Assembly: GCA_036383255.1 (NCBI GenBank)
Contig: DASVOS010000018.1
Location: forward strand, 281,432 to 345,431
DNA from: Gammaproteobacteria bacterium
Lineage (GTDB): Bacteria > Pseudomonadota > Gammaproteobacteria > Natronospirales > REEB76
Direction of reading: 5' to 3'
DNA: 64,000 nucleotides
Within the stretch, counting starts at the first letter, position 1. Every line of letters begins with the position of its first letter. This document shows positions 25,172-63,885 of the stretch, piece after piece. Made by a program: the position numbers and the translations under genes. The notes beneath the pieces are model-generated. The model worked only from the letters and a program-made list of their open reading frames with translations, did not search any database and had not been told where the DNA came from.

Positions 25172-26605
25172 TCAGCGGCCGTAGATGTCGTCGAAACGCA
25201 CGATGTCGTCCTCACCCAGGTACGAGCCCGTCTGCACCTCGATGATGGCGAGGTCGGTGTCGCCGGGGTTGCTGAGACGGTGCTTGTGCCCGGCCGGGAT
25301 GTAGGTGGACTGGTCGTGCTCGAGCCTGAAGGTCTTGTCGCCGTTCACGATCTCCGCCACGCCCTCGATCACCACCCAGTGCTCGCTGCGGTGCTCGTGC
25401 ATCTGCAGCGACAATGAGGCGCGCGGCTTCACCACGATGCGCTTCATCTTGTAGTGCGGCCCCTCCTCCAGCACCGTGTAGGTGCCCCAGGGCCGGTGCA
25501 CGGTGCGGTGCAGCCTGGCGGACTCGTGGCCGTCCGACTTGAGCTTGTCCACCACCTGCTTCACATCCTGGGTCCGGTCCCGGTGCGCGATGAGCAGGGC
25601 ATCGGGGGTGTCCACCACGATGAGCCCTTCCACGCCCACCGCGGCGACCAGCCGGTCGCCGCCCTGTACGTAGTTGTCGCGGGAATCCACCAGGATGGCC
25701 TGGCCCGCCACCCGGTTGCCCTGGGCGTCGGGTGCGGTGAGCTCGCTGACGGAGCGCCAGGAGCCGATGTCGCTCCAGCCGATGGCGCTCGGCACCACCT
25801 TCACGTTGTCGGCCTTCTCCATCACCGCGTAGTCGATGGAAATGGCCGGCGCCTGCGGGAACAGCTCGGATTCGATCTGCACCGCACGCGGGTCCTTGGC
25901 GGCCGCGGCGCTACGCTTCCAGGATTCCTGCGTCTTGGTGTAGATGTCCGGCGCGTAGCGCTGGATGGCCGCGAGGATGGCGTCCGCCCGGAAGCAGAAC
26001 ATGCCGGAGTTCCAGAGGTAATCGCCGGAGGCCAGGAAGGACTGGGCCCGCTCCAGGTCCGGCTTCTCCACGAAGCGCTTCACCGCGCCCGCCGCGCCCT
26101 GCTTCCAGGCGCCGGCGGACTGGATGTAGCCGTAGCCTGTCTCGGGCGCCGTGGGCACGATGCCGAAGGTGACGAAGCTGCCCTTCTCCGCTTCAGGTGC
26201 AGCGACCGCGACGGCTTTCAGGAAGGCGTCGCGGTCTTCGACGAGATGGTCCGCCGGCAGCACCAAGAGCAGTGTGCCGCCGCCGTGGCGTTCCGCCGCC
26301 ATGAACGCCGCCATGGCGATGGCGGCGGTGGTGTTGCGGCCGACCGGCTCCAGCAGGAACGAGACCTTGGCACCGTTGAGCACCCCCTGCAGGCCCTCGA
26401 GCTGCTCCTGGCTCTGGAAATGGTGGTCGCGGTTCGTGACCACCGCGATCTCTTTCACGCCCGGCAGCGCAGCAGAGCGCGCCAGGGTGTTCTGCAGCAG
26501 CGTCATGCCGCCCTGTACTTGCATGAAGGGCTTGGGACGCGCCTCGCGCGATACCGGCCAGAGCCTCGTACCGGCGCCGCCGGAGATGATGACAGGCAGG
26601 ATCAT
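25172..26605 (-). CDS. manC: Mannose-1-phosphate guanylyltransferase / mannose-6-phosphate isomerase (bifunctional)
   Basis: A type II bifunctional enzyme (477 aa) that makes GDP-mannose and also isomerises fructose-6-P to mannose-6-P. The pyrophosphorylase signature [13 protein letters not shown] is at residues 9-21, with FVEKPDL later. The C-terminal cupin domain, which carries isomerase activity, is seen in [20 protein letters not shown] and [11 protein letters not shown] with metal-binding His and Glu. It overlaps algC by four bases and is one base from miaB. GDP-mannose would feed mannose or GDP-derived deoxysugars into the glycan. No gmd/fcl-type genes are in the window, so mannose itself is the simplest product. 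Confidence 0.94.
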
Positions 26606-28005
26606 GCGTGAGCCCTGGCCGCGGGAGCGCCCATCTTATCAATGAACGCCAGGAGCTCATCGGTGCGGGCCTGCATCAGTGCCGCGTCGCCACGGGACTC
26701 CACGTTGAGCCGCAGGACCGGTTCGGTGTTGGACTTGCGCAAGTTGAAGCGCCAGTCCTTGTATTCCAGGCTGAGACCGTCCACCTGGTCCATGTGGGTC
26801 GCGGCGGGCTGGTACTTGGCTTCCACCGCCGCGATCACCCGGTCCGGGTCCGCCACCACCCGGTTGATCTCGCCGCTCACCGGGAACGCAGCCTGCTGCG
26901 ACTCGACGAGCTGCTTCAGGCTCTGGCCGGTGCGGCTCACGAGCTCCGCCACCAGCAGCCAGGGGATCATGCCGCTGTCGCAGTAGCGGAAGTCGCGGAA
27001 GTAGTGGTGGGCGCTCATCTCGCCGCCGTAGAGCGCATCCTCGCGGCGCATGCGCTCCTTGATGAAGGCGTGGCCGGTCTTGCTCAGCACCGGCAGCCCC
27101 CCGGCGGCCTTCACCGTCTCGAGGGTGGACCACGTCAGGCGCGGGTCATGCACGATCTTCGCGCCCGGGTGGCTCGCCAGCAGCGTGCGCGCCAGGAGCC
27201 CCACCAGGTAGTAGCCTTCCACGAAGCCGCCGTCGCCGTCGAAGAAGAAGCAGCGGTCGAAGTCCCCATCCCAGGCGATCCCCATGTCGGCCTTGTGTGT
27301 GCGCACCGCTTCGGCGGTGACGGCGCGGTTCTCCGGCAACAGGGGGTTGGGGATGCCGTTGGGGAAATTCCCGTCGGGTTCATGCTGCAGCTTCACGAAC
27401 TTGAACGGCAGCTCGGGCTCCAGCACGTCGATGACGGGACCCGCGCAGCCGTTGCCCGCATTGGTGACGATAGTGAGGGGCTTGAGCGCCCCCACGTCCA
27501 AGTATCCCAGCAGGTGGCGCACATAGTCGCGCTTGAGATCCAGAGTCTCGCAGCGGCCGCGCTTATGGGGTGTCTTCCATTCGGGCTGCGCCGCCACCCG
27601 CGCCTTGATCTCGAACAGGCCGCTGTCTCCGCTCACCGGGCGCGAGTCCTCGCGCACCAGTTTCATGCCGTTGTACCCCTGCGGGTTGTGGCTGGCGGTG
27701 ACCATGATGCCGCCGCCGAGGTTGCGGCTGAAGGTGGCGTGATATACCTGCTCGGTCCCGCACAAGCCGATGTCGAGCACATCGGCACCGGCGTCCTGCA
27801 CGCCGCGCGCCACGGCGGCGGCGAGTTCGGGGCTGGAGAGGCGCACGTCACGGCCCACCGCCACGCGCTTTGGGCCCGTGAGCTCGACGAAGGCGCGGCC
27901 GATGGCATAGGCGATGTCCGCGTCCAGTTCTTCGGGGACGCGGCCGCGGATGTCGTAGGCCTTGAAGGCGGCGCCCAGGCGGGCGGCCAGGTCGGTGGCT
28001 GTCAT
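26602..28005 (-). CDS. algC: Phosphomannomutase/phosphoglucomutase (AlgC/ManB type)
   Basis: An alpha-D-phosphohexomutase of 467 aa that interconverts Man-6-P/Man-1-P and usually also Glc-6-P/Glc-1-P. The phosphoserine loop is [13 protein letters not shown], the metal loop is [15 protein letters not shown], the sugar loop is [10 protein letters not shown], and the phosphate-binding loop [14 protein letters not shown] is close to the C terminus. Dual specificity of the AlgC group would supply Man-1-P for manC and Glc-1-P for rfbA. The ATG lies inside a TATATATG tract with no strong ribosome-binding site. The 80-base gap upstream holds a perfect TATAAT hexamer (28062-28067). Confidence 0.94.
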
Positions 28006-28061
28006 ATATAGAGGGGCCGGGCCCGCGACAGGACCGGCGGCGGCGTTGCTATGGAAGGCGG

Positions 28062-28067
28062 ATTATA
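28062..28067 (-). promoter_or_regulatory. Possible -10 element upstream of algC-manC
   Basis: The minus strand reads TATAAT here, 57 bases before the algC ATG, in the 80-base gap after the WbpM-like gene. The sequence 16-18 bases further upstream (around TCGTGA) is a poor -35. In this GC-rich gap a perfect -10 hexamer is suggestive. It would give algC-manC-miaB and the housekeeping genes after them a promoter independent of the glycan locus. Confidence 0.4.
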
Positions 28068-28085
28068 GACCGTGGGCCGCGGGGC

Positions 28086-29978
28086 TCACGACTTTACCAG
28101 GCGCAAGGCGACTCGGCCCGTGCCCTGTTCCCCGCTCTCGGCCTGGGGCGTGAACTCCGGCACCAGGGCGCGCAGCTGCACCTTGGCCCGCTCCGGGTCC
28201 GCCGCCACCGCCTGCAGGCTGTCGATGCCCGCATTCAGCGCGTCGAGCTGGGCCGGCACCGCGTTGGCCAGCAGCAGCTTGGGATGGGTGGTGCCCTTGA
28301 GCTCCTCGCGGGTGTAGAAGAGCTCCTCATGCATCTTCTCGCCGGGCCTAAGGCCCGTGTACACGATCTGGATGTCCTGGTGGGGCCGCAGGCCCGAGAG
28401 CTGGATCAGCTTCTCAGCCAGGTCACGGATGCGTACCGGCTCACCCATGTCCAGCACGAAGATCTCGCCGCCGCGGCCGATGGCGCCCGCCTGCATGATG
28501 AGGCTGGCGGCCTCGTGGATGGTCATGAAGTAGCGGGTGATGTCCGGGTCGGTGACGGTGACCGGACCGCCGGCGGCGATCTGCCGCTCGAACAGCGGCA
28601 CCACCGAGCCGTTGGAAGCCAGCACGTTGCCGAACCGGGTGGTGACGAAATGGGTGCCGGCGTCGCGGTTGAGGGCCTGGCAATAGAGCTCGGCCACGCG
28701 CTTGGTGGTGCCCATCACGTTGGTGGGGTTCACCGTCTTGTCGGTGGAGATCAGCACGAACTTGTCCACGCCGTGGCGCAGCGCCGCATCGGCGATGACG
28801 CGGGTGCCGAAGATGTTGTTGCGGATGCCCTCCGCGACGTTCTCCTCCACGATCGGCACATGCTTGTAGGCGGCGGCGTGGAAGATGATCTCGGGCTTGA
28901 CCTGGGCGAACAGCGTCTCTACCGCGGTCTCGTCCTGGATGTTGCCGAGCGCGCTGGTGAACACCAGCGAGGGCGCGGTGGCGGCCAGCTCCTGGTCGAT
29001 GCTGTAGAGGTTGTATTCGCTGTTGTCCATCACCACCAGCAGCGCCGGATCGTGGCGGCTGATCTGGCGGCACAGCTCGGCGCCGATGGAGCCGCCGCCG
29101 CCCGTCACCAGCACGCGCTTGCCGCGCAGGAAGTCGGAGATGGCGCGCGAGTCCAGCACCACCGGGTCGCGGCCGAGCAGGTCCTCCACCGTGACGGGGC
29201 GCAGGCGCGAGACCTCGACCCGGCCGTCGGCGAGTTCCGTGAGCGAGGGCAGCGTGCGGCAGGGCACATGCACCTCGTTGCACATCTGCACCACCCGGTC
29301 CATGGTCTTGCGCGAGGCCGAGGGCATGGCGATGAGCACGATGTTCGCGTCATAGGCGCGCACCAGGCGCGCGATGTCGTCGAGGCGGCCGCGCACCCGC
29401 ACGCCCTGCACCTCGTGGCCCTGCTTCTCGGCGGCGTCGTCCACCAGCGCCACCGGCAGGAACGGCCCATGGCGGCGCAGGTCGCGGATCAGGAGCTCGC
29501 CGGCGCGGCCGGCACCGACGATGATGGCGCGCGCGGTGCTCTCGTCGCCGAAGGTCATCCAGCGGTCCTTGAGCACGCGGTACAGCATGCGGCTGCTGCC
29601 GAGGCCGATCGCGAGCAGGATCGGGTACAGCAACAGCACCGAGCGCGGTACGCCCTGCAGGCGGCCGAACAGGAACGCCGCCAGCACGGTGGCGAGGGCG
29701 CCCAGCACCGTGGCCTTGACGATGCGCATCAGGTCGGGGATCGAGGCGTAGCGCCAGATGCCGCGGTAGCAGCCGAACATCCACAGCGTGAGTGCGTGCG
29801 CCGGCAGTGCCATGCAGGTGATGAGCAGCATGCCGCCGAAATAGATGTGCGGGATCGGAGTGAGGTTGAAGCGCACCCAGTAGGCGAGCAGCACCGCGAC
29901 CGGGATCCACAGCAGATCGTGGAGGAACACGGTCCACCGGCTGCGCAACAGCAACCACCCGTCTCGTCTGGAGCCCAT
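28086..29978 (-). CDS. Membrane-anchored nucleotide-sugar 4,6-dehydratase (WbpM/PglF/CapD family)
   Basis: A 630-aa protein with four N-terminal membrane segments, a first Rossmann-like domain (IIVGAGRAGELL) and a C-terminal extended-SDR domain (VLVTGGGGSIGAELCRQI). The active-site run STDKTVNPTNVMGTTKR has Met where SDRs normally carry Tyr, which is the known Ser-Met-Lys arrangement of this family. These enzymes convert UDP-GlcNAc to UDP-4-keto-6-deoxy-GlcNAc, the precursor of QuiNAc, FucNAc or bacillosamine. An upstream in-frame ATG (30020) overlaps the wbpL-like gene. I prefer ATG 29978 because AGAGGA lies ten bases before it. The wbpV-position SDR, wbpL-like and wbpM-like genes lie in the same order as in Pseudomonas B-band LPS loci. 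Confidence 0.92.
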   Translation of the reverse strand: MGSRRDGWLLLRSRWTVFLHDLLWIPVAVLLAYWVRFNLTPIPHIYFGGMLLITCMALPAHALTLWMFGCYRGIWRYASIPDLMRIVKATVLGALATVLAAFLFGRLQGVPRSVLLLYPILLAIGLGSSRMLYRVLKDRWMTFGDESTARAIIVGAGRAGELLIRDLRRHGPFLPVALVDDAAEKQGHEVQGVRVRGRLDDIARLVRAYDANIVLIAMPSASRKTMDRVVQMCNEVHVPCRTLPSLTELADGRVEVSRLRPVTVEDLLGRDPVVLDSRAISDFLRGKRVLVTGGGGSIGAELCRQISRHDPALLVVMDNSEYNLYSIDQELAATAPSLVFTSALGNIQDETAVETLFAQVKPEIIFHAAAYKHVPIVEENVAEGIRNNIFGTRVIADAALRHGVDKFVLISTDKTVNPTNVMGTTKRVAELYCQALNRDAGTHFVTTRFGNVLASNGSVVPLFERQIAAGGPVTVTDPDITRYFMTIHEAASLIMQAGAIGRGGEIFVLDMGEPVRIRDLAEKLIQLSGLRPHQDIQIVYTGLRPGEKMHEELFYTREELKGTTHPKLLLANAVPAQLDALNAGIDSLQAVAADPERAKVQLRALVPEFTPQAESGEQGTGRVALRLVKS

Positions 29979-29994: not shown

Positions 29995-31017
29995 TTAAGT
30001 CGGCACGCGTCGGCACTCAAGCGTATTAACGTACGCGATGAGCGCCAGGTAGACCGCCGCCGCCCACCCCAACAGGAGTCCCTGAACTCCTGGTTCAGTG
30101 AAGCAAAAGCCGGCTACGGCTAGCAAGCTACATTTTAACATAAGGACGTATTCCCAGAGTACCGCCCGGCGGTGGCTCCAGCCCAGTCCGACCAGACGCT
30201 GATAGAAGTGCTCCCGGTGGGCTTGCCAGGGCCGTTGGCCATGCACGGCACGACGTATCACCGTCCAAGTGGCATCCACCACGAAGGGCGAGAACACCAA
30301 TAGCCCCAGCCAGAGGGGGAACAGGTCTTGGCGCTCCGCCCAAAGAAGAAACAGAGCCACCAGCAGGCCGAGGCTTCCCGAGCCCACGTCCCCCATGAAG
30401 AGGCGTGCCGGGGGGAAGTTGAAGGGCAGGAAGCCCCCCGCTGCTGCTGCTGCCAACAACGCCACGCCGGCGAACACAGGCGCATGGGCCAAGCAGCCCA
30501 ACAGCGCAAAGGTGCCGAAGCCGATGACGGCCATTCCCCCGGCAAAGCCGTCCATCCCGTCCATGAAGTTATATAAGTTGATCAACCAGACGGTCAGCAG
30601 CAGGCTGAATGCCATGAGCACTCCATGGGGCGCATGCCACTCCCATCCCGGCAGGAGATGCAGGGATCCGAGCGCATACCCGCCCCAGTCCACCAATCCC
30701 AGAGCCGCAAGCACATGCACCAGGAGACGTAGCCAGGCCGGCAGCCGCCAGACATCATCTGCGAAGGAGACGGCAGCCACCATCAACAGCGGCACCGCCA
30801 CCCAGCCCAGGCCGGGCACATGCCACCCGGTGGTGAGCAGACCCACGCCGAGACCCGCCAGGATCGCGAGGCCGCCGGAGCGCGGCGTCGCGCCGGAATG
30901 GAGCGAACGTGCGTTGGGCAAGTCCAGGAGCGCGAAGCGGCCGCGGTAGCGGCTCAGGAAACCTGCGAGTGCCGCGCTCATCGCAGACGCGGCGAGGACC
31001 GCAAAGAGCAGGCGCAT
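29995..31017 (-). CDS. Polyprenyl-phosphate HexNAc-1-phosphate transferase (WbpL/WecA family)
   Basis: A 340-aa integral membrane enzyme with about ten hydrophobic segments that starts glycan assembly by moving a sugar-1-phosphate onto undecaprenyl phosphate. Conserved aspartates are in SFADDVWRLP, LYNFMDGMDGFAGG and LFMGDVGSGSLG. The cytoplasmic His motif is HREHFYQRLVGLGWSHR. WbpL-type enzymes accept UDP-FucNAc or UDP-QuiNAc, which fits the adjacent dehydratase. The ATG at 31017 overlaps the SDR stop by one base. The gene, above all its 3' half (29995-30600), is visibly less GC-rich than its neighbours and uses codons such as TTA and TAT, hinting at a different history. Confidence 0.92.
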   Translation of the reverse strand: MRLLFAVLAASAMSAALAGFLSRYRGRFALLDLPNARSLHSGATPRSGGLAILAGLGVGLLTTGWHVPGLGWVAVPLLMVAAVSFADDVWRLPAWLRLLVHVLAALGLVDWGGYALGSLHLLPGWEWHAPHGVLMAFSLLLTVWLINLYNFMDGMDGFAGGMAVIGFGTFALLGCLAHAPVFAGVALLAAAAAGGFLPFNFPPARLFMGDVGSGSLGLLVALFLLWAERQDLFPLWLGLLVFSPFVVDATWTVIRRAVHGQRPWQAHREHFYQRLVGLGWSHRRAVLWEYVLMLKCSLLAVAGFCFTEPGVQGLLLGWAAAVYLALIAYVNTLECRRVPT

Positions 31018-31856
31018 CACGGTGCCGGCCCCGGCGTGAACGGCCGCGGCCGGATGCCGAGCGCGTGCTCCGCGGCGGCGCAATCGAACACCATGTCCCG
31101 GTTCATGCGCTCCGCCACCTCCGGCGTGAGAGCGCGGTAACGCGGCAAGAGGCGCGCGGCGGCGATGGCCGCGCGGTAAAGGAAGACCGGCACCGGCAGG
31201 ATGCGCGGCTCGCGTCCCAATGCCCGGAAGATGCGTTCCAGCATGGCGCGGTAGCTCAGGGTCTCGCCGCCGGCGATCTCGTAGGCCGCCGACTGCGGCA
31301 GCGTGAGCGCCGCCACGCAGGCGGCGGCGAGATCGTCCGCGTGCAGCGGCTGGCGCATGCCTCGCCCCGGCCAGGCCAGCGGGAAGAAGCCGATGCGGCG
31401 GATGAGCGCGGCGATGCGCGCCACGTTCTTGTCGCGCCGGCCGTCGTAGACGAGCGTGGGCCGCAGCAGCGTGTAGACCACGCCGCGGGTGCTGCACGAA
31501 TCGATCATCCCCTGCTCCGCTTCCCGCTGGTGGCGCACCAGCTCGCGTTCTCGGTGCGAGGCCGAATCCACCTTGGTGTAGACGCTGGTGGTGCCGATGG
31601 CCACCACCCGGCGCAGGCTCGCGGGCGCGCCTCGCAGCAACCGCGGCAGGAGCGGCAGGGGCGCCAGGTGGATGAGTGCCTGGGTGTCGGCGAGCGCCGC
31701 GCTCCATGCTTCATCTCTGGCCACGTCCACCTGTCGCCATGCGCTGTCAGGATGGGAACGGCGGCTCAGCACCATGACCTCGTGGCCGGCGCGGGCGAGG
31801 CGCGGCAGGAGGTAATCTCCCACCACGCTGCTGCCGCCGGTCACCAGCACGCGCAT
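31017..31856 (-). CDS. Atypical NAD(P)-dependent epimerase/reductase (SDR family), wbpV position
   Basis: A 279-aa Rossmann protein with the dinucleotide-binding start MRVLVTGGSSVVGDYLLPRL. Typical later elements are LLRPTLVYDGRRDKNVARIA and QPLHADDLAAACVAAL. Its place before the WbpL-like and WbpM-like genes suggests it reduces the 4-keto-6-deoxy-HexNAc nucleotide to its QuiNAc or FucNAc form. However, the catalytic YxxxK motif of extended SDRs is not where expected: the region after TTSVYTK reads ERELVRHQREAEQGM, with no Tyr/Lys pair. It may therefore belong to the atypical SDR group and have another role. The ATG lies four bases after the GT2 stop. Confidence 0.75.
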   Translation of the reverse strand: MRVLVTGGSSVVGDYLLPRLARAGHEVMVLSRRSHPDSAWRQVDVARDEAWSAALADTQALIHLAPLPLLPRLLRGAPASLRRVVAIGTTSVYTKVDSASHRERELVRHQREAEQGMIDSCSTRGVVYTLLRPTLVYDGRRDKNVARIAALIRRIGFFPLAWPGRGMRQPLHADDLAAACVAALTLPQSAAYEIAGGETLSYRAMLERIFRALGREPRILPVPVFLYRAAIAAARLLPRYRALTPEVAERMNRDMVFDCAAAEHALGIRPRPFTPGPAP

Positions 31857-31860: not shown

Positions 31861-32730
31861 TCAACGCCGCCGCAGCCGGACGATGGGCGCGAGCAGCAGG
31901 AAGCGTGACCAGATGCCCGCCCACACCAGCACCGTGAGCCAGGCTGGGCTCGCGGCACGCTGGAACTTGGAGAAGTAGCGCCACATGCCCCGGTGCTTGT
32001 GCCAGAGCACGAACACCGGCCGGCCGCGGCTGGAGGCGCCCTGCACGTGGCTCACGCTCACGGCCGGCACGAACAGCACGCCTGCCCCGGCCTGCTGCAC
32101 GCGCTTGCACAGGTCGAGGTCCTCGCAGTGCAGGAAATAGCCCTCGTCCCAGCCGCCCAGCCGTTCGAAGAGGTCACGGCGTATCAGGAGGCAGGCGCCG
32201 GAGATGGCTTCCACCGGCGCGGGGCCATCAGGCAGCGGCGTGCCCGTGAGGTCGAAGCCGCTCACCTTGCCGTCGGTGCCCGGGCCATCGAGTTTGAGCA
32301 CCCGCATCAGCGCGCGGCGCGTGTCCGGCAGGTGGCGGCGGCAGCCGCGCTGCTCGCTGCCATCACTGTTTAGCACCAGCGGGCCCAGCATGCCCGCCTG
32401 GGGACGCGCCTCAAGCACCGCCACCAGGCGCTCGAGCGCTCCCGCCGGCATGCGGCAGTCGGGGTTGATGAACAGGAGGTAGCGGCCGGTGGCGGAAGCG
32501 GCGCCCTGGTTGCAGGCGGCGCCGAAGCCGCGGTTCACGGGATTGCGCGCCAGCACCACGCCGGGGTGCGCGCCGGATTCCAGGAACGCGAGGCTGCCGT
32601 CCTCGGAGGCGTTGTCCACCACCACGGTGCGGACCAGGCCCTGCTGGCCGGCGAGGGATTCCACCAGCCCGCGCAGCAGCGGGCCGGCGTTGTAGTTGAC
32701 GGTGACCGCCGTGACCGCCGCGGCGGACAC
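31861..32730 (-). CDS. Family 2 glycosyltransferase (rhamnosyltransferase-like)
   Basis: A 289-aa GT-A fold enzyme. The N terminus AVTVNYNAGPLLRGLVESL and VVVDNASEDGSL form the nucleotide-binding half. LLFINPDCRMP holds the metal-binding acidic motif (a DxD variant, PDC). GACLLIRRDLFERLGGWDEGYFLHCEDLDLC contains the ED acceptor-side motif, here described by its parts. This pattern is typical of WbbL-like rhamnosyltransferases, which suits the dTDP-rhamnose genes in the locus. A hydrophobic C-terminal stretch may associate it with the membrane. The start codon is GTG at 32730, one base after the GSCFA gene. Confidence 0.88.
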   Translation of the reverse strand: MSAAAVTAVTVNYNAGPLLRGLVESLAGQQGLVRTVVVDNASEDGSLAFLESGAHPGVVLARNPVNRGFGAACNQGAASATGRYLLFINPDCRMPAGALERLVAVLEARPQAGMLGPLVLNSDGSEQRGCRRHLPDTRRALMRVLKLDGPGTDGKVSGFDLTGTPLPDGPAPVEAISGACLLIRRDLFERLGGWDEGYFLHCEDLDLCKRVQQAGAGVLFVPAVSVSHVQGASSRGRPVFVLWHKHRGMWRYFSKFQRAASPAWLTVLVWAGIWSRFLLLAPIVRLRRR

Positions 32731-39965: not shown

Positions 39966-39972
39966 GCGCCCC

Positions 39973-51836: not shown

Positions 51837-51890
51837 ATGTCGCTCCGGAGTAGGTCCGGCTGAGGACCTGTTTTACCGCAAAAGTCCGCT

Positions 51891-52090: not shown

Positions 52091-54960
<2,870 letters not shown>

Positions 54961-56555: not shown

Positions 56556-57131
56556 ATGGCCAGCCCAGACTTCCTTTCGGCCGCAGAACTCCGGTCCTGC
56601 GGGTTCGCCAGGCTTGGCGACAACGTGCTAATCGATCGTACTGCGCGCATCCTCGGTGCGGAACGGATCAGCCTGGGTTCCAACGTGCGTATCGACGCCT
56701 ACAGCGTGATGAGCGCCGGCATCGGCGGCATCGCCATCGGCGACTACGTGCATATCGCCGCGCATGCATTCCTGGCCGGCGCCGGACGCATAGAGATGCA
56801 CGATTTCAGCGGCCTGTCTGGCCGGGTCTCCATATATTCCTCCAACGACGACTATCACGGCGACGCGCTGACCAACCCCACCGTGCCGGAAACGTTCCGC
56901 AAGGTGCATAGCGCGCCCGTCACGCTCGAGGCCCATGTCATCGTGGGCGCCGGCAGCGTGATCCTGCCGGGCGTCACGTTGCACAGGGGCGCGGCGGTCG
57001 GCGCGCTCTCCCTCGTGCGCAAAGACGTGGCCGAGTTCTGCATCGTATCGGGGACCAGCGGCAGGATCATAGGCCAGCGCAAGCGGGACCTGCTGAAACT
57101 GGAGGCGCGCCTGCGCGCCTCTCAGGGCTGA
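56556..57131 (+). CDS. Left-handed beta-helix acyltransferase (WbbJ/LacA-like O-acetyltransferase)
   Basis: A 191-aa hexapeptide-repeat protein. The repeats run from about residue 25 to 160 (for example NVRIDAYSVMSAGIGGIAIGDYVHIAAHAFL in consecutive hexads, listed only as the region, and VIVGAGSVILPGVTLHRGAAVGA). The loop SSNDDYHGDALTNP contains the catalytic-type His of sugar O-acetyltransferases. It probably acetylates a sugar hydroxyl or, given the aminotransferase two genes on, an amino group, but the substrate is unknown. It ends 51 bases before the next glycosyltransferase. C-terminal residues form a short charged helix. Confidence 0.85.
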   Translation: MASPDFLSAAELRSCGFARLGDNVLIDRTARILGAERISLGSNVRIDAYSVMSAGIGGIAIGDYVHIAAHAFLAGAGRIEMHDFSGLSGRVSIYSSNDDYHGDALTNPTVPETFRKVHSAPVTLEAHVIVGAGSVILPGVTLHRGAAVGALSLVRKDVAEFCIVSGTSGRIIGQRKRDLLKLEARLRASQG

Positions 57132-57182: not shown

Positions 57183-57935
57183 GTGACCACCCAGAACCCC
57201 ATCGTATTCATCTTGTCCTGGGAACGGCCGCTCTACCTGTGGGCATGCCTCGACAGCCTGTATACCTCCACCCAGGTGCCCTGCCGCTTCGTGCTCATGG
57301 ACAACGCCTCCCAGGACCCGCTGGTGGATCGCGTGATCCGCTCGTTCGAGGCGCGCGGCATGTTCCACAAGGTACATCGCCGCACCGACAACAGCCCCCA
57401 CGCACTGGCAGAGACCCTGGACGCGCACAAGTCCGAGGTCGGGGATTACTTCGGCTTCGTGGAGAGCGACGTGACGGTCCTGCGCTCACGTCCCTGTTGG
57501 CTGGAGGAGTTCCAGCAGCTCACCGCCGCGGACCCGTCCATCGCCATGCTGGGCTCCCTGATCGACCAGGTCGACTTCATCGATCCCGCCTGGGTGGCGC
57601 AGCGCTTCCCGGAGCTCGACGAGGACCAGCTCAAGTTCTTCACCAAGAGCAGCAGCAAGGAACGGACCCTCCTGGATGAATACCCGGAGCGCACCACCGA
57701 CGCCATCACGCCGCCGGGCCGGCTCACCTTCCTGCGGCGCGAGGCCGTGGAGCGCACCGGCATCCTGCCGGACTTCCGGCTGGCCCATACGCTGCGCGAC
57801 ATGGGCTACAAGGCCGTGATCGCCACCCGCGTCCGTCACCGCCACCTGTCACTGGCCAACATATTCGACTATCCCGAGTACGAACGGGATAACCGCAACA
57901 AGTTCTTCGCGAGGCTGGTGCGTGAAAAGCGCTGA
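57183..57935 (+). CDS. Small GT-A-fold glycosyltransferase
   Basis: A 250-aa protein that starts with GTG. The N terminus IVFILSWERPLYLWACLDSL and FVLMDNASQDPLVD has the nucleotide-binding pattern of family 2-like transferases. GFVESDVTVL holds an acidic ExD triplet that could bind metal, and RRTDNSPHALAET lies in between. The C-terminal part (ITPPGRLTFLRREAVERTGILPDF) looks like the acceptor half. No membrane segments are found. It overlaps the aminotransferase start by 14 bases, so both are probably cotranslated. The sugar specificity cannot be told; family membership is judged by pattern and is less sure than for the other glycosyltransferases. Confidence 0.75.
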   Translation: MTTQNPIVFILSWERPLYLWACLDSLYTSTQVPCRFVLMDNASQDPLVDRVIRSFEARGMFHKVHRRTDNSPHALAETLDAHKSEVGDYFGFVESDVTVLRSRPCWLEEFQQLTAADPSIAMLGSLIDQVDFIDPAWVAQRFPELDEDQLKFFTKSSSKERTLLDEYPERTTDAITPPGRLTFLRREAVERTGILPDFRLAHTLRDMGYKAVIATRVRHRHLSLANIFDYPEYERDNRNKFFARLVREKR

Positions 57936-59025
57936 GCCCGAGTTCATACGCTACATCCGGCCGGAGATCCCGCCGCCGGAAGAGTGGCTGGCGCACCTGC
58001 GTGAGTCCTACGCGGTGGGCTACTTCACCAACACCGGCCCGGCAGTGCGGCGCTTCGAGGCCGCGCTGGCTTCCAAGTACTCGCGCGGGCGCGCCGCCGT
58101 GAGCGGGCCCAACGCCACCAATGCCCTGGTGGCGGCGCTCGAGGCCCTGGATGTGCGCGGTGGCACGGTGCTGACACCCGCCTACACCTTCCCTGCCACC
58201 GCCCATGCCATCCAGATGGCCGGGGCGCGTCCCGAGTTCTGCGACATCGATCCCGCCACCTGGGAACTGGATCCAGAGGCGGTGAGACACAGGCTCGCGC
58301 AGGGCGGCATCGGCGCCATCCTGCACGTGCGGGCCTACGGCTTCGGCCACGATTTGGGCTGGCTGGAGACCCTGGCGCGGGAGCACAAGGTACCCCTGCT
58401 GATCGATGCTGCCGCGGCCCTGGGCGGCAGCCAATCCCTCGGCGGCTGCGTGGGCCAGCAGGGCGACATGGAAGTGTTCTCCCTGCACGCCACCAAGGTC
58501 TTCGCCATCGGCGAAGGCAGCGTCACGTTCATGCACCCGGACCTGGAACAGCGCTACCGCCGCGTCTCCAACTTCGGCATCGACTACCCGGACGTCACAG
58601 ACGCCGGCCTGAACAGCAAGCTCAGCGACGTCCAGGCCGCCGTGGGGCTCGCGGTGCTGGACCACATCGACAGCCACATCGCCCACCGTCAGCGCGTGGC
58701 ATCCCTCTACCACGAGGCGCTCGCCGGCCTGCCGCAGCTGCGCCACCTCCAGCCTCCCGCGCTCTCACCCTGGCAGAGCTACCCGGTGCTGCTCGCCCCT
58801 GGCGTGGATGTGGGGCGCGTCCTGGAGCGGGCGCTGGCCGCGCGGCTCGAACTCAAGCGCGGCTATTACCGGGCACTGCACCAGACCACCCGCTTCCGGT
58901 CCGAGCCGCGCCTGCCGGTGACGGAGGACGTGGCGGCGCAGGTCGTTTGCCTGCCGGTCTATTCCAGCATGTCCGACGAGACCGCCGCGGAGGTGCTGCG
59001 GCGCTTCCGTGCGGCGCTGGGTTAG
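57922..59025 (+). CDS. DegT/DnrJ/EryC1/StrS family PLP aminotransferase
   Basis: A 367-aa PLP-dependent sugar aminotransferase that would convert a nucleotide-linked keto-sugar to an amino sugar. The catalytic Lys is in SLHATKVFAIGEGS, the PLP phosphate site includes SGPNATNALVAAL, and the cofactor-ring Asp is in LLIDAAAALGG. NSKLSDVQAAVGLAVLD is a further family block. The usual Gln in DAAQ is replaced by Ala (DAAA), and the GEGG loop reads GEGS, both tolerated variants in related groups. The GTG start overlaps the glycosyltransferase end by 14 bases. The keto-sugar substrate could come from the WbpM-like or rfbB product, but this is inference. Confidence 0.9.
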   Translation: MKSAEPEFIRYIRPEIPPPEEWLAHLRESYAVGYFTNTGPAVRRFEAALASKYSRGRAAVSGPNATNALVAALEALDVRGGTVLTPAYTFPATAHAIQMAGARPEFCDIDPATWELDPEAVRHRLAQGGIGAILHVRAYGFGHDLGWLETLAREHKVPLLIDAAAALGGSQSLGGCVGQQGDMEVFSLHATKVFAIGEGSVTFMHPDLEQRYRRVSNFGIDYPDVTDAGLNSKLSDVQAAVGLAVLDHIDSHIAHRQRVASLYHEALAGLPQLRHLQPPALSPWQSYPVLLAPGVDVGRVLERALAARLELKRGYYRALHQTTRFRSEPRLPVTEDVAAQVVCLPVYSSMSDETAAEVLRRFRAALG

Positions 59026-59026: not shown

Positions 59027-59938
59027 ATGCTGCCCAACTTCCTCTGCATCGGCGCACAGAAGAGCGGTACCACAACCCTGCTTAACCAGCTCGGGCGGCA
59101 CCCGGACATCTACATGTCCCCGGCGCGCGAGACTCAGTTCTTCGTGCTGGACAACCTCTACTCCCAAGGGGTCCACCGCTACGAGAGCGCATTCTTCCAC
59201 GGCTGGACCGGGCAGAAGGCAGTGGGCGAGAAGACGCCGGAGTACCTGTATGACCCTTTGGTGCCGGCACGCATCGCAGAGACGCTCGGCACCGGTGTCC
59301 GGTTCATCGCCAGCTTCCGCAGCCCCGCACAGCGCGCCTACTCCCACTACCGCCACAACTTCCAGCAGTTCTGGGAGGACATGTCTTTCGAAGCCGCGCT
59401 CGACGCCGAGGAACGCCGCTGCTCAGCCGGCCGCTTCCAGCGGCTGCGCTACAGCTACCTGGATCGGGGCCGCTACGCAGCCCAACTGGAACGCTATCTC
59501 GAGCGGTTCCCGCGGGAGAACCTGATGCTCCTTGTGCATGAGCGGGACATCGAACACGGACAGATGGAGACCCTCGAGCGCATCTTCGGTTTCCTCGGAG
59601 TGGACGCCTCCTGGTCCCCACCCAGCCCGGTCTCGGCGGGCCGCCCCTCGGCCATGGTGCCGCGCTTCATCGAGGTGGAGGAGACTGTAGAGGTGGAAGG
59701 CGTCCAGGCCCGGGCGAAGCCAGGCGACCTCCTGCTCACCCGCAACCAGAGATCCACCCTGGTGCGTTCGCCATCGGCTGCGCTCGCCGGCTTCGCCCGG
59801 CGGGTCATCGAGAATCTCCCTTCGGAGCAGAGTCTTTCCCGCGCGCAGGAACTCGAGCTCAACCGCCGGCACTTCAGCACCGACATCCGCCTCCTGGAAG
59901 GCATGTTGGGGACTGACTTGGGATCCTGGCTGGACTAG
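59027..59938 (+). CDS. Sulfotransferase, heparan-sulfate-sulfotransferase-like
   Basis: A 303-aa protein with a strong PAPS loop FLCIGAQKSGTTTLLNQL at residues 5-22, an early acidic ARETQFFVLDN segment, and the 3'-phosphate motif FIASFRSPAQRAYSHYRH (Arg and Ser). LMLLVHERDIEHG corresponds to the YEDL-like strand. ATG 59027 is preferred over an in-frame start six codons upstream, which lies inside the aminotransferase gene. Its TAG stop and the TAG stop of the convergent gene share one CTAG (59935-59938). Confidence 0.9.
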   Translation: MLPNFLCIGAQKSGTTTLLNQLGRHPDIYMSPARETQFFVLDNLYSQGVHRYESAFFHGWTGQKAVGEKTPEYLYDPLVPARIAETLGTGVRFIASFRSPAQRAYSHYRHNFQQFWEDMSFEAALDAEERRCSAGRFQRLRYSYLDRGRYAAQLERYLERFPRENLMLLVHERDIEHGQMETLERIFGFLGVDASWSPPSPVSAGRPSAMVPRFIEVEETVEVEGVQARAKPGDLLLTRNQRSTLVRSPSAALAGFARRVIENLPSEQSLSRAQELELNRRHFSTDIRLLEGMLGTDLGSWLD

Positions 59939-60636
59939 GTCGCGAGCTTGCGCTCGAATAGCCGCACCGCCTCGGCGTAGATGCGGGCGTTCTCCCGGTT
60001 GGCCTCCTCCAGTTCCGGGAGTAGGTGCCGGTACTCCACCATATGGCTCTCTTGGCCGCTGCGGCGCTCGTGCTGCACTTCCAGTGCGCTGCCCAGCAGC
60101 CGGTTGAGGCAGGCCACGCTCTCGGCGTAGCGCTCCGTGATGCCTATCAGCGCGTACTCATCCAGCGGCACGCCGTCCAGGAACCGCTCGTAGAGCCGGC
60201 TCATCGCCTCGCTGCGCGCGAACTCCACCAGCCCAACCTCACCTTCCGCGATGAGACCGATGACCGGATTCTTGGCCACGGTAGCGGGATTCTTCGACGC
60301 CACATCCCTGAAGTAGTAGTAATGCGAGATGAGCCGGGGCACCGGATCGCGCAGGAAGGTGATGAACCAGGACTCCGGCCGCAAGAACGCGTACTTGCCG
60401 GCCTGGAAATGCCCGTGCAACACGTCGTAGTCCCGCCGGATGCGTGATGCTTCCAACCGCACCCGGACATGGGCCATGGCGCGCCCCAGGCGGTGCCGCA
60501 GCGCGGCCGAGGTGGGCCGGTCGTCGTAATCGAGCAGGTAACGGCCGAGCTTTCCGCGCTTGATCTCGGCGACGAGGCTGGTGCCCGCCGTCTTGGGGAC
60601 GTGCACGGAGACCAGTAGCTTTCCTGCTGCGCGCAA
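59935..60636 (-). CDS. Sulfotransferase family 2-like protein
   Basis: A 233-aa protein whose first motif VHVPKTAGTSLVAEI is the P-loop of the Sulfotransfer_2 group (carbohydrate 2-O and chondroitin-type sulfotransferases). FITFLRDPVPRLISHYYYF is the 3'-phosphate motif. DYDVLHGHFQAGKYAFL lies between them, with a His-Gly-His of the kind seen in that group. The start is TTG at 60636 with GAGGGTGAG just upstream; no in-frame ATG fits. It is the only minus-strand gene among plus-strand neighbours here and lies head-to-head with the 60712 gene across a 75-base gap holding TATGAT/TATATC patches that may serve as promoters. Confidence 0.85.
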   Translation of the reverse strand: MRAAGKLLVSVHVPKTAGTSLVAEIKRGKLGRYLLDYDDRPTSAALRHRLGRAMAHVRVRLEASRIRRDYDVLHGHFQAGKYAFLRPESWFITFLRDPVPRLISHYYYFRDVASKNPATVAKNPVIGLIAEGEVGLVEFARSEAMSRLYERFLDGVPLDEYALIGITERYAESVACLNRLLGSALEVQHERRSGQESHMVEYRHLLPELEEANRENARIYAEAVRLFERKLAT

Positions 60637-60711: not shown

Positions 60712-61434
60712 ATGCGGCACCGCTATCTGTTCATCCTGACCGCGCCCTTCTCCGGCTCCACCCTGCTGGCCTCGCTGCTGGGCAGCTCACCGCAGGTATC
60801 CATCCTGAAGACGCCGCAGCATGAAGGGCTGAAGCTGCCCGGCATGCACGCCTTGCTCATCTCCAAAGGGGGCTCGCAGTTCAACCCGCTTCCCTGGGGC
60901 TACCTGCATGAGCTCTACCACCGCCATTGGGACCTATCGAAGCCGGTGCTGGTGGAGAAGGGCCAGTACCCCAAGCACGGTGAGTACATACAGCGCTGTT
61001 TCCCGGGCGTCAGCTTCATCGTGATGCCGCGCGATCCCTATGCCTGGTGCGAGAGCATCAAGCGGCGGCGTAAGCCGGACAAGCCCGCGAAGCCGATGGA
61101 GGAGACGGCCCTGCGCTGGGTGCGCTCCGCCGCGTGGCACATCCACAACATCAAGACCCTTGAACGGGTGACCTACTTCACCTATGAGGACCTCTGCGAC
61201 CGGACGCCCGATGTGCTGGAGCGGCTGCGGCAGTTCATGCCGGAGCTGGGCGAGATGCGGCCGGAGGGCGAGTTCGAGGTTCATTCCGCGCTCGGCAAGC
61301 GCAGGAACCCCATCACCAATACCAACGAGAGTGCCCTGGGCCGGCTCGATTCCACCGAGATCGGCGCCATCTCCAGGACCCTCAACACCTACCCCGACAT
61401 CACCGCCTACTTCGGCTACAAGGTGCTGGGTTAG
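60712..61434 (+). CDS. Sulfotransferase-like protein (paralogue of the uvrA-coupled gene)
   Basis: A 240-aa protein with the loop [20 protein letters not shown] near residues 10-29, the 3'-phosphate region [18 protein letters not shown], and [19 protein letters not shown] at the C terminus. All three match the gene at 54961-55692 in order and spacing. These small proteins share SGST and the DPYAWCES motif, which marks a distinct subfamily. Convergent with the dehydrogenase: its TAG and that gene's TAA share TTAG (61431-61434). Substrate unknown. Confidence 0.82.
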
Positions 61435-62735
61435 GCCTTGACGATGTTGGAAGCCGGCGTACGGTAACGGCCGCGGGTGTCCACCAGCAGCTGGGCATGG
61501 CGCCCGATGAGGCCGTAGTCGAAGCCATCGTGGTCCGTGGCCAGCAGCACGCAGTCGAAGCCCTCGAGGGACTTCTCGTCCAACGCCACGCTGGCGAGGT
61601 CGAAGCGATGCTCGCGCATCTTCGGGAACTTAGGCACGAAGGGATCCGAATAGGCCACCTCCGCGCCCCGCTCCCGCAACAGCTCCATGATCTCCACCGC
61701 CGGTGACTCGCGGGTGTCGTCCACGTTCTTCTTGTAGGCGATGCCCAGCACCAGCACGCGGCTGCCCTTGAGGGCCTTGCTGCGCCCGTTCAGTGCCGCC
61801 GCGGTCTTCTCCACCACCCACTCCGGCATGCGACTGTTCACCTCGCCGGCGAGGCGGATGAAGCGCGTGTCCACGCCGTACTCCAGCGCCTTCCAGGTGA
61901 GGTAGAACGGGTCGATGGGGATGCAGTGGCCGCCCAGGCCCGGCCCCGGGTAATAAGGCACGAAACCGAAGGGTTTGGTGGCCGCCGCGTCGATGACCTC
62001 GTGGATGTCGATGCCCATGCGGTCCGCCACGATCTTCATCTCGTTGACGAGACCGATGTTGATGGCCCGGTGGATGTTCTCCAGGAGCTTGGTCATCTCC
62101 GCCGTGCGCAGGCTGGAGACGGGCACCACTTTGTCGATGACACCTGAATACAGCGCGCTGCCGATCTCCCGGCAGGCCGGCGTGAGGCCGGATACCACCT
62201 TGGGGATGGTCTGGGTGTGGAAGCTCTTGTTGCCCGGATCTTCGCGCTCCGGCGAATAGATCACGAAGCAGTCCGTACCGGGCTTGAGACCCAGGGATTC
62301 CAGCACCGGCACCACCAGTTCCTCGGTGGTGCCGGGATAGGTGGTGCTCTCCAGCGACACTGCCTGGCCCGCGCGCAGATGGGGCTTGAGCTCCGCCATG
62401 GTGTTGGCGATGAAGCTCACGTCCGGCTCGCGATGCCTCCCCAGGGGCGTGGGCACACAGATGATGAGGGCGTCGCAGTCCCGCGCGGAGCTGAAGTCGT
62501 GATTGGCACTGAACTTGGCCTTGACCGCCTGCGCCACCCGCGTGGCGGGGATCTGGGCGATGTAGCTTGAGCCTTCGTTGAGCGCCTCCACCTTGGCGGC
62601 GTCGATGTCGAAGCCGGTGACGGCGAAACCCGCCTCGCTGAAGCGCAGCGCCAGCGGCAGGCCCACGTACCCCAGGCCCACCACTCCGACGCGGGCGCTC
62701 TTGTCCTGGAGCTTCTGCAGCAGTGCGTGTGTCAT
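61431..62735 (-). CDS. UDP-N-acetylglucosamine/hexosamine 6-dehydrogenase (WbpA/WecC family)
   Basis: A 434-aa NAD-dependent four-electron dehydrogenase making a UDP-HexNAc uronic acid. The N-terminal Rossmann motif is [17 protein letters not shown] at residues 16-32, the catalytic Cys is in [24 protein letters not shown] is typical for the WbpA group, and the C-terminal [20 protein letters not shown] is the UDP-binding domain. WbpA-type substrate (UDP-GlcNAc) is more likely than UDP-glucose because of these blocks. No wbpB/wbpD/wbpE partners lie in the window, so the glycan may contain a HexNAcA directly. It would add a carboxylate to the already anionic polymer. Confidence 0.93.
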
Positions 62736-62765
62736 GGCCCGTGGGACTCCCGGATGGACAGGCGC

Positions 62766-62771
62766 ATTCTA
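62766..62771 (-). promoter_or_regulatory. Possible -10 element before the UDP-HexNAc dehydrogenase
   Basis: The minus strand reads TAGAAT, 31-36 bases before the ATG at 62735, in the 61-base gap after the last sulfotransferase. It matches five of six -10 positions. No good -35 lies at the right spacing. Weak pattern evidence. Confidence 0.28.
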
Positions 62772-62796
62772 CCCGAGGCGCAAGGGACGGCAGCCG

Positions 62797-63885
62797 CTAG
62801 AGTGCGCCGGGCAAGGGCAGGCTATCCAGCCCACCCGAGGGCGTGTAGCCCAAGGCCGCGAGTTCCTTGCCCGCTTCGTGCCAGGCGCGTTCCTGGTCTG
62901 CGCCGGAGAGGGCCTCACGCCACTCGCCGGTTATGCCGCGCCGGATCACGTGTTCCGCCGCCTCGCCGCGCGCGCGGCCTGTGAGGGTCTCGAAGCGGGT
63001 GGCCTCGTACACGTCCCGCAGCAGTGCTGGATCGGTATCCGCCCCGAGCCAGCCGAACAGTTTCCGTGCCACGCGGGGGAAATCCTGCTGCAGGTCCTCA
63101 TAACGCAGGATCGCGAGCTGACCATCCCCGGCGGCCTGCTGCAGCATGCGGATGCGGCTTGCCCATCCTGCCAGGAGTTCCCAATAGTCGTTCTGTGCGT
63201 CCACGTGCGCGCGCTTGATCGAGCGCATCAGGCGGCGAAAATGCACCGCGGAGATGGCCGCGTCACGCCCATCCCGCACGATCACGAGCTTGCGGGCCCG
63301 CGGACGCCAGGCCTTGAGGTGGGCGTAGCGGGCGATCATGTCGGCGCCCTTCAGCACCAGGGTCTGTCCCTGCTCCAGCGGGGCCGCCACGGTCTCGATG
63401 AAGAGGTCCGCTGCTTGGTAGACGTCGGCGGCGCCGGCGATGCCCGCGTACAGCTGCTCCAGGGCAGGCGCCCCAAGGTCGGCGGCGTTCAGGAGCTCAC
63501 GCTGGTCCCGGGACTCCCAGTCGGAGCTGCCACGCCGGCGCTTGAGCCCATAGAGCCCGAACAATGCCGCTGCCGCGGTGGGCGGCGGCAGCGCGAACAG
63601 GGCTTCCACCGTGTCACCGCCGGTGGCTCGTTTCAACAGCGCGGCGCCCTCGGCGTCACCCTGCAGGTCCTTGGGCAGCGCGCCCCAGGCATTGCGCGCG
63701 AAATAGCCCGCCAGCCGCTCAGGGGCGGGCAATAGAGCATCCCCGTCCGCCGCGCGTCCGGCTCCCGCCCCGATGAGGTCGATCTCCTTCACTCCGCGGA
63801 AGGCGGGATGCCGGTCCAGGATGCGCAGCAGCCAGCTGGTGCCGCTCTTGTACATGCCTGCGATGAATACGGGTTCTGAGGCCAT
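62797..63885 (-). CDS. Sulfotransferase-like protein (paralogue of the Wzt-coupled gene)
   Basis: A 362-aa protein with the loop FIAGMYKSGTSWLL near residue 6, LVLKGADMIARY in the middle, the 3'-phosphate motif LVIVRDGRDAAISAVHFR, LAILRYEDLQQDF, and GITGEWREAL before the C terminus. Each block pairs with the gene at 38095-39255. Two starts are possible. ATG 63918 gives an 11-residue extension; ATG 63885 (MASEPVFIAG) fits the paralogue's N terminus. A TATCAT hexamer just upstream of 63918 would place a transcript start near 63918, which also favours 63885. A 6-bp hairpin with a four-base loop lies at 63937-63952. Confidence 0.85.
   Translation of the reverse strand: MASEPVFIAGMYKSGTSWLLRILDRHPAFRGVKEIDLIGAGAGRAADGDALLPAPERLAGYFARNAWGALPKDLQGDAEGAALLKRATGGDTVEALFALPPPTAAAALFGLYGLKRRRGSSDWESRDQRELLNAADLGAPALEQLYAGIAGAADVYQAADLFIETVAAPLEQGQTLVLKGADMIARYAHLKAWRPRARKLVIVRDGRDAAISAVHFRRLMRSIKRAHVDAQNDYWELLAGWASRIRMLQQAAGDGQLAILRYEDLQQDFPRVARKLFGWLGADTDPALLRDVYEATRFETLTGRARGEAAEHVIRRGITGEWREALSGADQERAWHEAGKELAALGYTPSGGLDSLPLPGAL

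What the first reader, a model, noticed from the sequence alone, without database searches (positions are those of the whole stretch)
25172..63885. Candidate sulfated, ABC-exported surface polysaccharide system with nine sulfotransferase modules and its own PAPS supply
Seen: cysD and cysNC head a minus-strand run with complete dTDP-rhamnose genes, manC-algC, WbpM-like and WbpL-like genes, glycosyltransferases and Wzm/Wzt. Nine P-loop sulfotransferase modules lie within it or next to it (33819, 37058, 38095, 54961, 55698, 59027, 59935, 60712, 62797). Known: sulfotransferases use PAPS made by CysDNC, and Wzm/Wzt exports undecaprenyl-linked glycans. Inferred: the product is an O-antigen or capsule sulfated at several positions, which would be unusual for a free-living gammaproteobacterium.
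Basis: partly seen in the sequence, partly recalled or inferred. Interest (0 to 1): 0.82.

Follow-up and report, generated by a model that had tools for sequence, protein, structure and literature searches.

The report
Sulfated surface sugar coat gene cluster
This stretch of a bacterial chromosome appears to build a rhamnose-containing sugar chain, decorate it with sulfate and probably glycerol phosphate, and export it to the cell surface; such coats are known from a few marine bacteria, and this one stands out for its nine sulfate-adding enzymes and its own supply of activated sulfate.

Summary
The genes are there as described. A 26-kb minus-strand run of 20 genes (cysD to manC, gaps at most 89 bp) holds CysD/CysNC, RmlABCD, Wzm/Wzt, WbpM/WbpL-like proteins, ManC/AlgC, glycosyltransferases and three sulfotransferase modules; six more modules lie beyond ssb-uvrA. 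Seven of nine pass a Pfam sulfotransferase cut-off; relatives place the other two there. PF01077 sulfite reductase was found in none of the family's 12 genomes, yet six of them have an APS kinase, each beside polysaccharide genes. Best reading: an ABC-exported, rhamnose-containing O-antigen-like glycan carrying sulfate and glycerol phosphate. Closest known: the Cobetia marina capsule, Rha-2-sulfate/Man-6-phosphoglycerol (PMC11766843). Sulfated capsules are thus already known in gammaproteobacteria: a new variant of a known kind. Against: nothing shows sulfate on the product; a CysH-like protein could also use PAPS; six relatives have sulfotransferase-family genes but no APS kinase hit; an Aeromonas O-antigen cluster has a sulfotransferase gene but no sulfate found (PMC4483657).

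The parts
50386..51294 (-). cysD, ATP sulfurylase small subunit
   Evidence: NF009214 CysD 537 bits vs cut-off 413
48464..50386 (-). cysNC, ATP sulfurylase large subunit fused to APS kinase (PAPS synthesis)
   Evidence: NF004035 1023.9 bits vs cut-off 715; 76% identical copy in relative G001
47550..48431 (-). rmlA
   Evidence: PF00483 E 1.5e-78
47008..47550 (-). rmlC
   Evidence: PF00908 E 1.7e-74
46145..47011 (-). rmlD
   Evidence: PF04321 E 1.4e-98
45091..46152 (-). rmlB
   Evidence: PF16363 E 1.2e-88
42950..45094 (-). membrane phosphoglycerol transferase-like protein 2 (LtaS/GacH type)
   Evidence: PDB GacH 2e-19, LtaS 1e-13; GTANSEF and FGDH motifs, no [CS]xPxR sulfatase motif, N-terminal hydrophobic segments
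40792..42966 (-). membrane phosphoglycerol transferase-like protein 1 (47% identical to its neighbour)
   Evidence: PDB LtaS 3e-18, GacH 6e-10; motifs as above; 47%
39973..40737 (-). wzm, ABC-2 permease
   Evidence: PF01061 E 1.7e-7; nearest NCBIfam KpsM, 34 vs cut-off 300; 51% homologues in G102, G225
39252..39965 (-). wzt, ABC ATPase, 237 aa, too short for a C-terminal glycan-binding domain
   Evidence: PF00005 E 2.2e-22; nearest NCBIfam galactan Wzt 176.7 bits, below cut-off 400
38095..39255 (-). sulfotransferase ST3
   Evidence: PF00685 E 3.3e-17
37058..38005 (-). sulfotransferase ST2
   Evidence: PF13469 E 6.3e-29
33819..37061 (-). ST1: N-terminal sulfotransferase domain fused to GT2 and GT4 domains
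   Evidence: GT domains; ST domain by relatives
32732..33793 (-). GSCFA-family protein, role unknown
   Evidence: PF08885 E 9.1e-44
31861..32730 (-). glycosyltransferase family 2
   Evidence: PF00535 E 3.1e-22
31017..31856 (-). SDR-type sugar epimerase/reductase
   Evidence: PF01370 E 1e-15
29995..31017 (-). wbpL-like initiating sugar-phosphate transferase
   Evidence: PF00953 E 3.3e-32; 47% homologue in G007
28086..29978 (-). wbpM-like UDP-HexNAc dehydratase
   Evidence: PF02719 E 3.5e-118; 62% homologue in G007
26602..28005 (-). algC-like phosphomannomutase
   Evidence: PF02878 E 1.9e-34
25172..26605 (-). manC-like GDP-mannose synthesis protein
   Evidence: PF00483 and PF01050
54961..55692 (+). 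sulfotransferase ST4 (44% identical to ST8)
   Evidence: PF13469 E 4.3e-13
55698..56447 (+). sulfotransferase ST5, heparan 3-O-sulfotransferase-like
   Evidence: PF13469 and PF00685; PDB 3rnl 3e-14, HS3ST1 1.5e-11
56556..57131 (+). hexapeptide-repeat acyltransferase-like protein
   Evidence: PF00132 E 5e-13
57183..57935 (+). GT2-like protein, weak
   Evidence: PF00535 17.6 bits, below cut-off 23.3
57922..59025 (+). DegT-type sugar aminotransferase
   Evidence: PF01041 E 3.7e-72
59027..59938 (+). sulfotransferase ST6, heparan 3-O-sulfotransferase-like
   Evidence: PF00685 E 4.3e-8; PDB 3rnl 7e-24, HS3ST1 4e-17
59935..60636 (-). sulfotransferase ST7, heparan 2-O/6-O-sulfotransferase-like
   Evidence: PF03567 below cut-off; family profile to PDB 8e-15; 6 of 8 relatives match PF03567
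60712..61434 (+). sulfotransferase ST8
   Evidence: PF13469 E 6.2e-8
61431..62735 (-). nucleotide-sugar dehydrogenase
   Evidence: TIGR03026 425.5 bits vs cut-off 189.8
62797..63918 (-). sulfotransferase ST9 (37% identical to ST3)
   Evidence: PF00685 E 1.2e-19
63994..64000 (+). first bases of an anion permease (CitMHS/TrkA_C), candidate sulfate importer; the rest lies outside the window (G000:C18:345425-347203)
   Evidence: PF03600 E 2.2e-61; TIGR00785 102.5 bits, below cut-off 198.6; homologue beside an APS-kinase gene in G013 and G015
18123..19898 (-). Wzy_C-family protein, candidate O-antigen ligase, outside the run
   Evidence: PF04932 E 2e-18; 34% homologue beside wbpM/wbpL in G007

Best explanation
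The locus makes an ABC-transporter-exported surface polysaccharide, most likely an O-antigen. WbpM/SDR make a HexNAc that WbpL loads on undecaprenyl phosphate (inferred); GT2 and the ST1-GT2-GT4 protein extend it with rhamnose (RmlABCD) and mannose (ManC/AlgC). Sulfate, perhaps imported by the permease at the right edge, is activated by CysD/CysNC to PAPS, and cytoplasmic sulfotransferases put sulfate on several positions before Wzm/Wzt exports the chain; CysQ, encoded elsewhere, removes the PAP by-product. The two LtaS/GacH-like membrane proteins then add glycerol phosphate in the periplasm, and a Wzy_C-type ligase may join the chain to lipid A-core. Shown: gene content, families, order, motifs, relatives. 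Inferred: sugar order, positions of sulfate and glycerol phosphate, O-antigen rather than capsule, and that the right-hand block serves the same polymer.
For: PAPS genes within the polysaccharide run, translationally coupled. All nine modules traceable to the sulfotransferase superfamily. PF01077 absent in this genome and the 11 others of the family while it is found in 11 of 14 control genomes, so no full assimilatory route explains CysNC. The APS-kinase gene lies beside polysaccharide genes in 6 of 6 family genomes that have one (G000, G001, G003, G005, G007, G008; G008 only a 3.9-kb contig with an rmlD end), as CysD/CysNC or as an ORF with APS-kinase C-terminus (G005's tested: Sat-CysC 938.7 vs 669 bits). 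A sulfotransferase lies within 12 kb of it in 4 of these 6. CysQ passes its equivalog cut-off, 318.8 vs 228.8. The order uvrA, ssb, rmlACDB, wzm, wzt, ST1-GT recurs in G102 and G225 of another family. ST1 and ST7 relatives co-occur (4 of 7 ST7 genomes other than this one; Fisher p 0.004), and in G091 ST1-, ST5- and ST7-like genes and Wzm/Wzt share about 28 kb. Known precedent with the same sugars and both decorations: PMC11766843.
Against: No chemistry. A CysH-like protein with an ECGIH motif (L022:2662-3384; 79.8 vs cut-off 154 bits) may also consume PAPS. ST-family genes need not mean sulfated glycan: six of the 11 relatives (G002, G004, G006, G009, G010, G011) have 1-11 PF13469 matches but no APS-kinase hit, and the Aeromonas salmonicida O-antigen cluster has an ST-domain ORF next to Wzt with no sulfate seen in the O-antigen structure (PMC4483657, passages). 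The right-hand block is separated by ssb-uvrA. No sulfotransferase match lies on the PAPS contigs of G003 and G008. Only 5 of 71 named CysNC loci show an ST relative by tblastn or motif. Both single-sequence AlphaFold models failed (pLDDT 48.7 and 41.2).
Confidence: 0.72

Rival explanations
1. A sulfated capsule, not an O-antigen: Wzm/Wzt act as KpsM/KpsT and the chain is anchored on a Kdo-lipid and passed through an outer-membrane OPX channel.
For: Permease nearest to KpsM; the two known sulfated, ABC-exported relatives are capsules.
Against: WbpL/WbpM-type priming genes in the run; no Kps partners among the window proteins scanned with Pfam; the only OPX match in the genome lies on another contig, C9:221006; ATPase nearest to galactan O-antigen Wzt. 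KpsC/KpsS were not searched genome-wide.
Confidence: 0.2
2. CysD/CysNC serve general sulfur metabolism and merely sit next to the polysaccharide genes; the sulfotransferases act on other, small substrates or proteins.
For: A CysH-like protein with ECGIH is encoded; sulfotransferase families act on many substrates (recalled).
Against: PF01077 missing in 12 of 12 family genomes; PAPS genes lie in polysaccharide loci in 6 of 6; ST1 is fused to glycosyltransferases.
Confidence: 0.12
3. Two separate glycans: the minus-strand run makes one polymer with ST1-ST3, and the block right of uvrA (ST4-ST9, aminotransferase, acyltransferase, sugar dehydrogenase) decorates or makes another.
For: uvrA and ssb separate the blocks, strands differ, and the right block has its own sugar-modifying genes.
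Against: ST3 and ST9 are 37% identical across the gap; ST1-, ST5- and ST7-like genes and Wzm/Wzt lie on one 28-kb stretch in G091; the right block has no exporter or flippase of its own among the proteins scanned.
Confidence: 0.3

Closest known systems
Cobetia marina KMM 1449 sulfated capsule cluster (PMC11766843; abstract and passages read)
   Same: dTDP-Rha and GDP-Man genes, CysNC + CysD, CysQ, sulfate permease, sulfotransferase, ABC transporter and an LTA-synthase-like protein; product Rha-2-sulfate / Man-6-phosphoglycerol.
   Different: Cobetia uses kpsDMTE and kpsSC with a wcb operon; here WbpL/WbpM-type priming, two LtaS-like genes, nine sulfotransferase modules, CysQ elsewhere in the genome. 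Sequences were not compared directly.
Vibrio sp. KMM 8419 sulfated capsule cluster (PMC11641403; abstract and passages read)
   Same: dTDP-Rha genes, cysC/cysN/cysD copies in the cluster, ABC export, sulfotransferases, WecA-type primer.
   Different: Three sulfotransferase genes; the Vibrio cysDNC are second copies; kps-type channel genes present.
Synechan (xss) cluster of Synechocystis PCC 6803 (PMC8205485; passages read)
   Same: Sulfated polysaccharide with rhamnose and mannose among its sugars, made by a dedicated cluster with sulfotransferases.
   Different: Wzx/Wzy-dependent, two sulfotransferases, no PAPS genes mentioned for the cluster in the passages seen.
GacH, glycerol-phosphate transferase of the streptococcal rhamnose polysaccharide (PDB 5u9z, 5wcx)
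   Same: Best solved-structure match of the 42950-45094 protein (2e-19).
   Different: Gram-positive; match covers residues 231-456 only; no sulfation there.
Wzm/Wzt O-antigen loci with a WbpL-type primer, e.g. P. aeruginosa common antigen (recalled, no call)
   Same: WbpL-type initiation, ManC/AlgC, Wzm/Wzt.
   Different: No PAPS genes or sulfotransferases there as far as recalled.

Membership tests
PAPS-dependent sulfotransferase superfamily | Match to a sulfotransferase family | tested here: met
   7 of 9 over Pfam cut-offs; 2 of 9 only through relatives
PAPS-dependent sulfotransferase superfamily | 5' P-loop and 3'-phosphate-binding R..x5S motif (roles recalled) | tested here: met
   9 of 9
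PAPS-dependent sulfotransferase superfamily | PAPS binding and sulfate transfer | not testable with these tools
   needs assay
Bifunctional CysNC | CysN and APS-kinase domains in one protein with CysD partner | tested here: met
   NCBIfam cut-offs passed
ABC-transporter-dependent O-antigen | Wzm permease and Wzt ATPase | tested here: met
ABC-transporter-dependent O-antigen | WecA/WbpL-type initiating transferase | tested here: met
   PF00953 E 3.3e-32
ABC-transporter-dependent O-antigen | O-antigen ligase | tested here: inconclusive
   PF04932 protein at 18123-19898; ligase and polymerase not told apart
ABC-transporter-dependent O-antigen | Carbohydrate-binding C-terminal domain on Wzt (one subtype only; recalled) | tested here: not met
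   Wzt is 237 aa; nearest is galactan Wzt, below its cut-off
Kps group 2/3 capsule as in Cobetia | KpsS/KpsC and KpsD/KpsE beside KpsMT | tested here: not met
   none among the window proteins scanned; OPX only on another contig; KpsC/KpsS not searched genome-wide
LtaS/GacH phosphoglycerol transferases | Alkaline-phosphatase-type domain with Thr in GTxxSEF-like motif and GDH, membrane N-terminus (roles recalled) | tested here: met
   both proteins; far below the NCBIfam LtaS cut-off (63-65 vs 970)
Sulfatase | [CS]xPxR active-site motif (recalled) | tested here: not met
   absent in both PF00884 proteins

The most novel reading that the evidence does not exclude
In this bacterial family PAPS synthesis has been kept only to sulfate surface glycans and is uncoupled from sulfur assimilation; here it feeds a doubly anionic (sulfate plus glycerol phosphate) Wzm/Wzt-exported O-antigen with about nine sulfation enzymes, and the sulfotransferase domain fused to the polymerising glycosyltransferases sulfates the chain as it grows, possibly capping it.
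Probability: 0.3. Interest if true: 0.7.

Novelty: new variant of a known kind. Interest (0 to 1): 0.5.

Why it matters
Sulfated polysaccharides are usually taken from animals and algae, and the genes for bacterial ones are known from few cases. A locus with nine sulfotransferases of several subfamilies, some akin to heparan sulfate enzymes, its own PAPS supply and no sulfite reductase in the genome is a clean place to assign single sulfotransferases to positions on one glycan, and to ask what a sulfate-coated surface is for. The shared uvrA-ssb locus in relatives offers natural comparisons with and without PAPS genes.

Tried and rejected
Sulfatase: the two PF00884 proteins looked like sulfatases by Pfam but lack [CS]xPxR and match LtaS/GacH. 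Wzm as ORF 39962-41065: no Pfam hit; the real frame is 39973-40737. In those 71 loci sulfotransferase relatives turned up in 5 by tblastn or motif (L066, L067, L068, L113, L121); the motif misses most TPR-type sulfotransferases, so this is a lower bound. The chance estimate for clustering ignores local duplication (ST3/ST9 37%, ST4/ST8 44%, ST5/ST6 29%). The Fisher test uses genomes drawn over the class without correcting for relatedness.

Full report
What is there. The window is G000:C18:281432-345431 of an unnamed 2.585-Mb genome in 18 contigs, listed as 100% complete. From cysD to manC, 20 genes on the minus strand follow each other with gaps of -17 to +89 bp: cysD, cysNC, rmlA, rmlC, rmlD, rmlB, two PF00884 membrane proteins, wzm, wzt, ST3, ST2, ST1-GT2-GT4, a GSCFA protein, a GT2, an SDR, wbpL-like, wbpM-like, algC, manC. 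On the other side lie ssb and uvrA, then ST4, ST5, an acyltransferase, a weak GT2, a DegT aminotransferase, ST6, ST7, ST8, a nucleotide-sugar dehydrogenase and ST9. At the right edge begins a CitMHS/TrkA_C anion permease, followed by what look by eye like ribosomal-protein genes.

The nine modules. Seven pass Pfam cut-offs. For ST7, an alignment with 7 relatives gives heparan sulfate 6-O- and 2-O-sulfotransferase chains at 8e-15 and 6e-14, and 6 of 8 members match PF03567. For the N-domain of ST1, 12 of 16 members match PF13469 and the profile's best PDB hit is an aryl sulfotransferase at 8e-5, over a short C-terminal stretch; the window's own domain does not reach E 0.01. ST5 and ST6 match 3rnl and heparan 3-O-sulfotransferase. 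All nine have the P-loop and the R[DNS][PG]x5S motif; controls are, where the motif also misses 5 of 6 PF13469 ORFs elsewhere in this genome.

PAPS supply. CysD and CysNC pass NCBIfam cut-offs and CysQ does too. PF01077, the sulfite/nitrite reductase domain, has no match in this genome though 11 of 14 control genomes have it, nor in the 11 other genomes of the family, of which 5 are at least 90% complete; it is also missing from 5 of 7 other genomes of the order. Against a pure sulfation economy: a CysH-like protein with an ECGIH motif is encoded. Of the 11 family relatives, 5 have an APS-kinase hit (G001, G003, G005, G007, G008) and 6 do not. The five hits lie beside polysaccharide genes: Wzz and rml genes (G001), rmlABCD (G003), Wzz-like and Polysacc_synt (G005), wbpL/wbpM/wzyC (G007), an rmlD end on a 3.9-kb contig (G008). 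G005's is a bifunctional Sat-CysC, above cut-off; the others of that type were not tested by family. So two unrelated ATP sulfurylases fill the same place, which points to selection for PAPS at this locus (inference). A sulfotransferase lies within 12 kb in G000, G001, G005 and G007, but none on that contig in G003 or G008.

Synteny. In G102 and G225, of another family, the order is uvrA, a transporter-like ORF, an ssb-like ORF (both by eye, G102), rmlACDB, wzm (51%), wzt (56 and 57%), ST1-GT (ST domain 44 and 43%); in G102 the fusion carries two GT2 regions rather than GT2-GT4, and two of three following ORFs match PF03567. Neither stretch showed CysD, CysNC or LtaS-like genes in its 20 kb. 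In G073 ST1-GT, rmlC and rmlD lie beside miaB, phoH and ybeX, the left flank of this window. ST1-domain relatives occur in 32 of 274 class genomes and ST7 relatives in 8 of 274, both counts with this genome. I fetched 11 of the 31 other ST1 genomes, mostly the best-scoring; a wzt-like gene is in the fetched ST1 stretch of 6 of 11, wzm in 4.

Phosphoglycerol. The two PF00884 proteins are 47% identical, have hydrophobic N-termini, GTANSEF and GDH but no [CS]xPxR, and match GacH and LtaS in the PDB. None of the 11 family relatives has a match; 9 of 56 genomes searched do, this one included.

Mechanism. Shown by sequence: enzymes for PAPS, dTDP-rhamnose, GDP-mannose, a HexNAc primer, ABC export, and two kinds of anionic decoration. 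Inferred: sulfation in the cytoplasm before export, glycerol phosphate after export, O-antigen rather than capsule. The short Wzt (237 aa) argues against a CBM-recognised chain end.

Compared with what is known. The Cobetia marina capsule has Rha-2-sulfate and Man-6-phosphoglycerol and a cluster with dTDP-Rha, GDP-Man, PAPS, sulfotransferase, ABC-transporter and LTA-synthase-like genes (PMC11766843; abstract and passages). Vibrio sp. KMM 8419 is similar with three sulfotransferase genes (PMC11641403). Synechan has two (PMC8205485). The same Vibrio paper calls PAPS plus sulfotransferase genes in a polysaccharide cluster a hallmark of sulfated polysaccharide, whereas the Aeromonas salmonicida cluster has a sulfotransferase-domain ORF and no sulfate found (PMC4483657). 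I found no paper on this locus or on nine sulfotransferases in one such cluster in nine searches of this open-access library; most subscription papers are not held there.

Verdict. New variant of a known kind.

Noticed in passing
G002, G004, G006, G009, G010, G011 (relatives): 1 to 11 PF13469 matches each, in most listed cases in frames over 500 aa, yet no APS-kinase hit with the CysNC query; either PAPS comes from elsewhere, the gene is missing from the assembly, or these proteins do not use PAPS.
   Followed up: partly
L022:2662-3384 (G000:C4): CysH-like protein with ECGIH motif in a genome without a PF01077 match; its product sulfite would have no known reductase.
   Followed up: partly
L186:14963-17436 (G102): Three similar tandem ORFs (starts LL.WSAK.GCTFAVKW) right of the ST1-GT fusion; two of three match PF03567 over cut-off.
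   Followed up: partly
G033:C31:8335-8937: Only the C-terminal part (about residues 620-711) of the 42950 LtaS-like protein matches here, twice in one 462-aa frame: a domain that may exist apart from the transferase.
   Followed up: no
L019, L020 (G000:C17, C4): Further sulfotransferase-family ORFs of 535-685 aa outside the window; by eye they begin with TPR-like repeats.
   Followed up: no
L021 (G000:C9:195000-212000): A second polysaccharide-like cluster with one PF13469 match and GT4 gene; by eye of exosortase-associated type (asparagine-synthase-like genes); the genome's only OPX match lies about 9 kb beyond.
   Followed up: no
window 51378-52091 and relatives G001, G003, G005, G102, G225: The ssb/uvrA region recurs as the edge of polysaccharide loci of different content, a likely exchange site.
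   Followed up: partly
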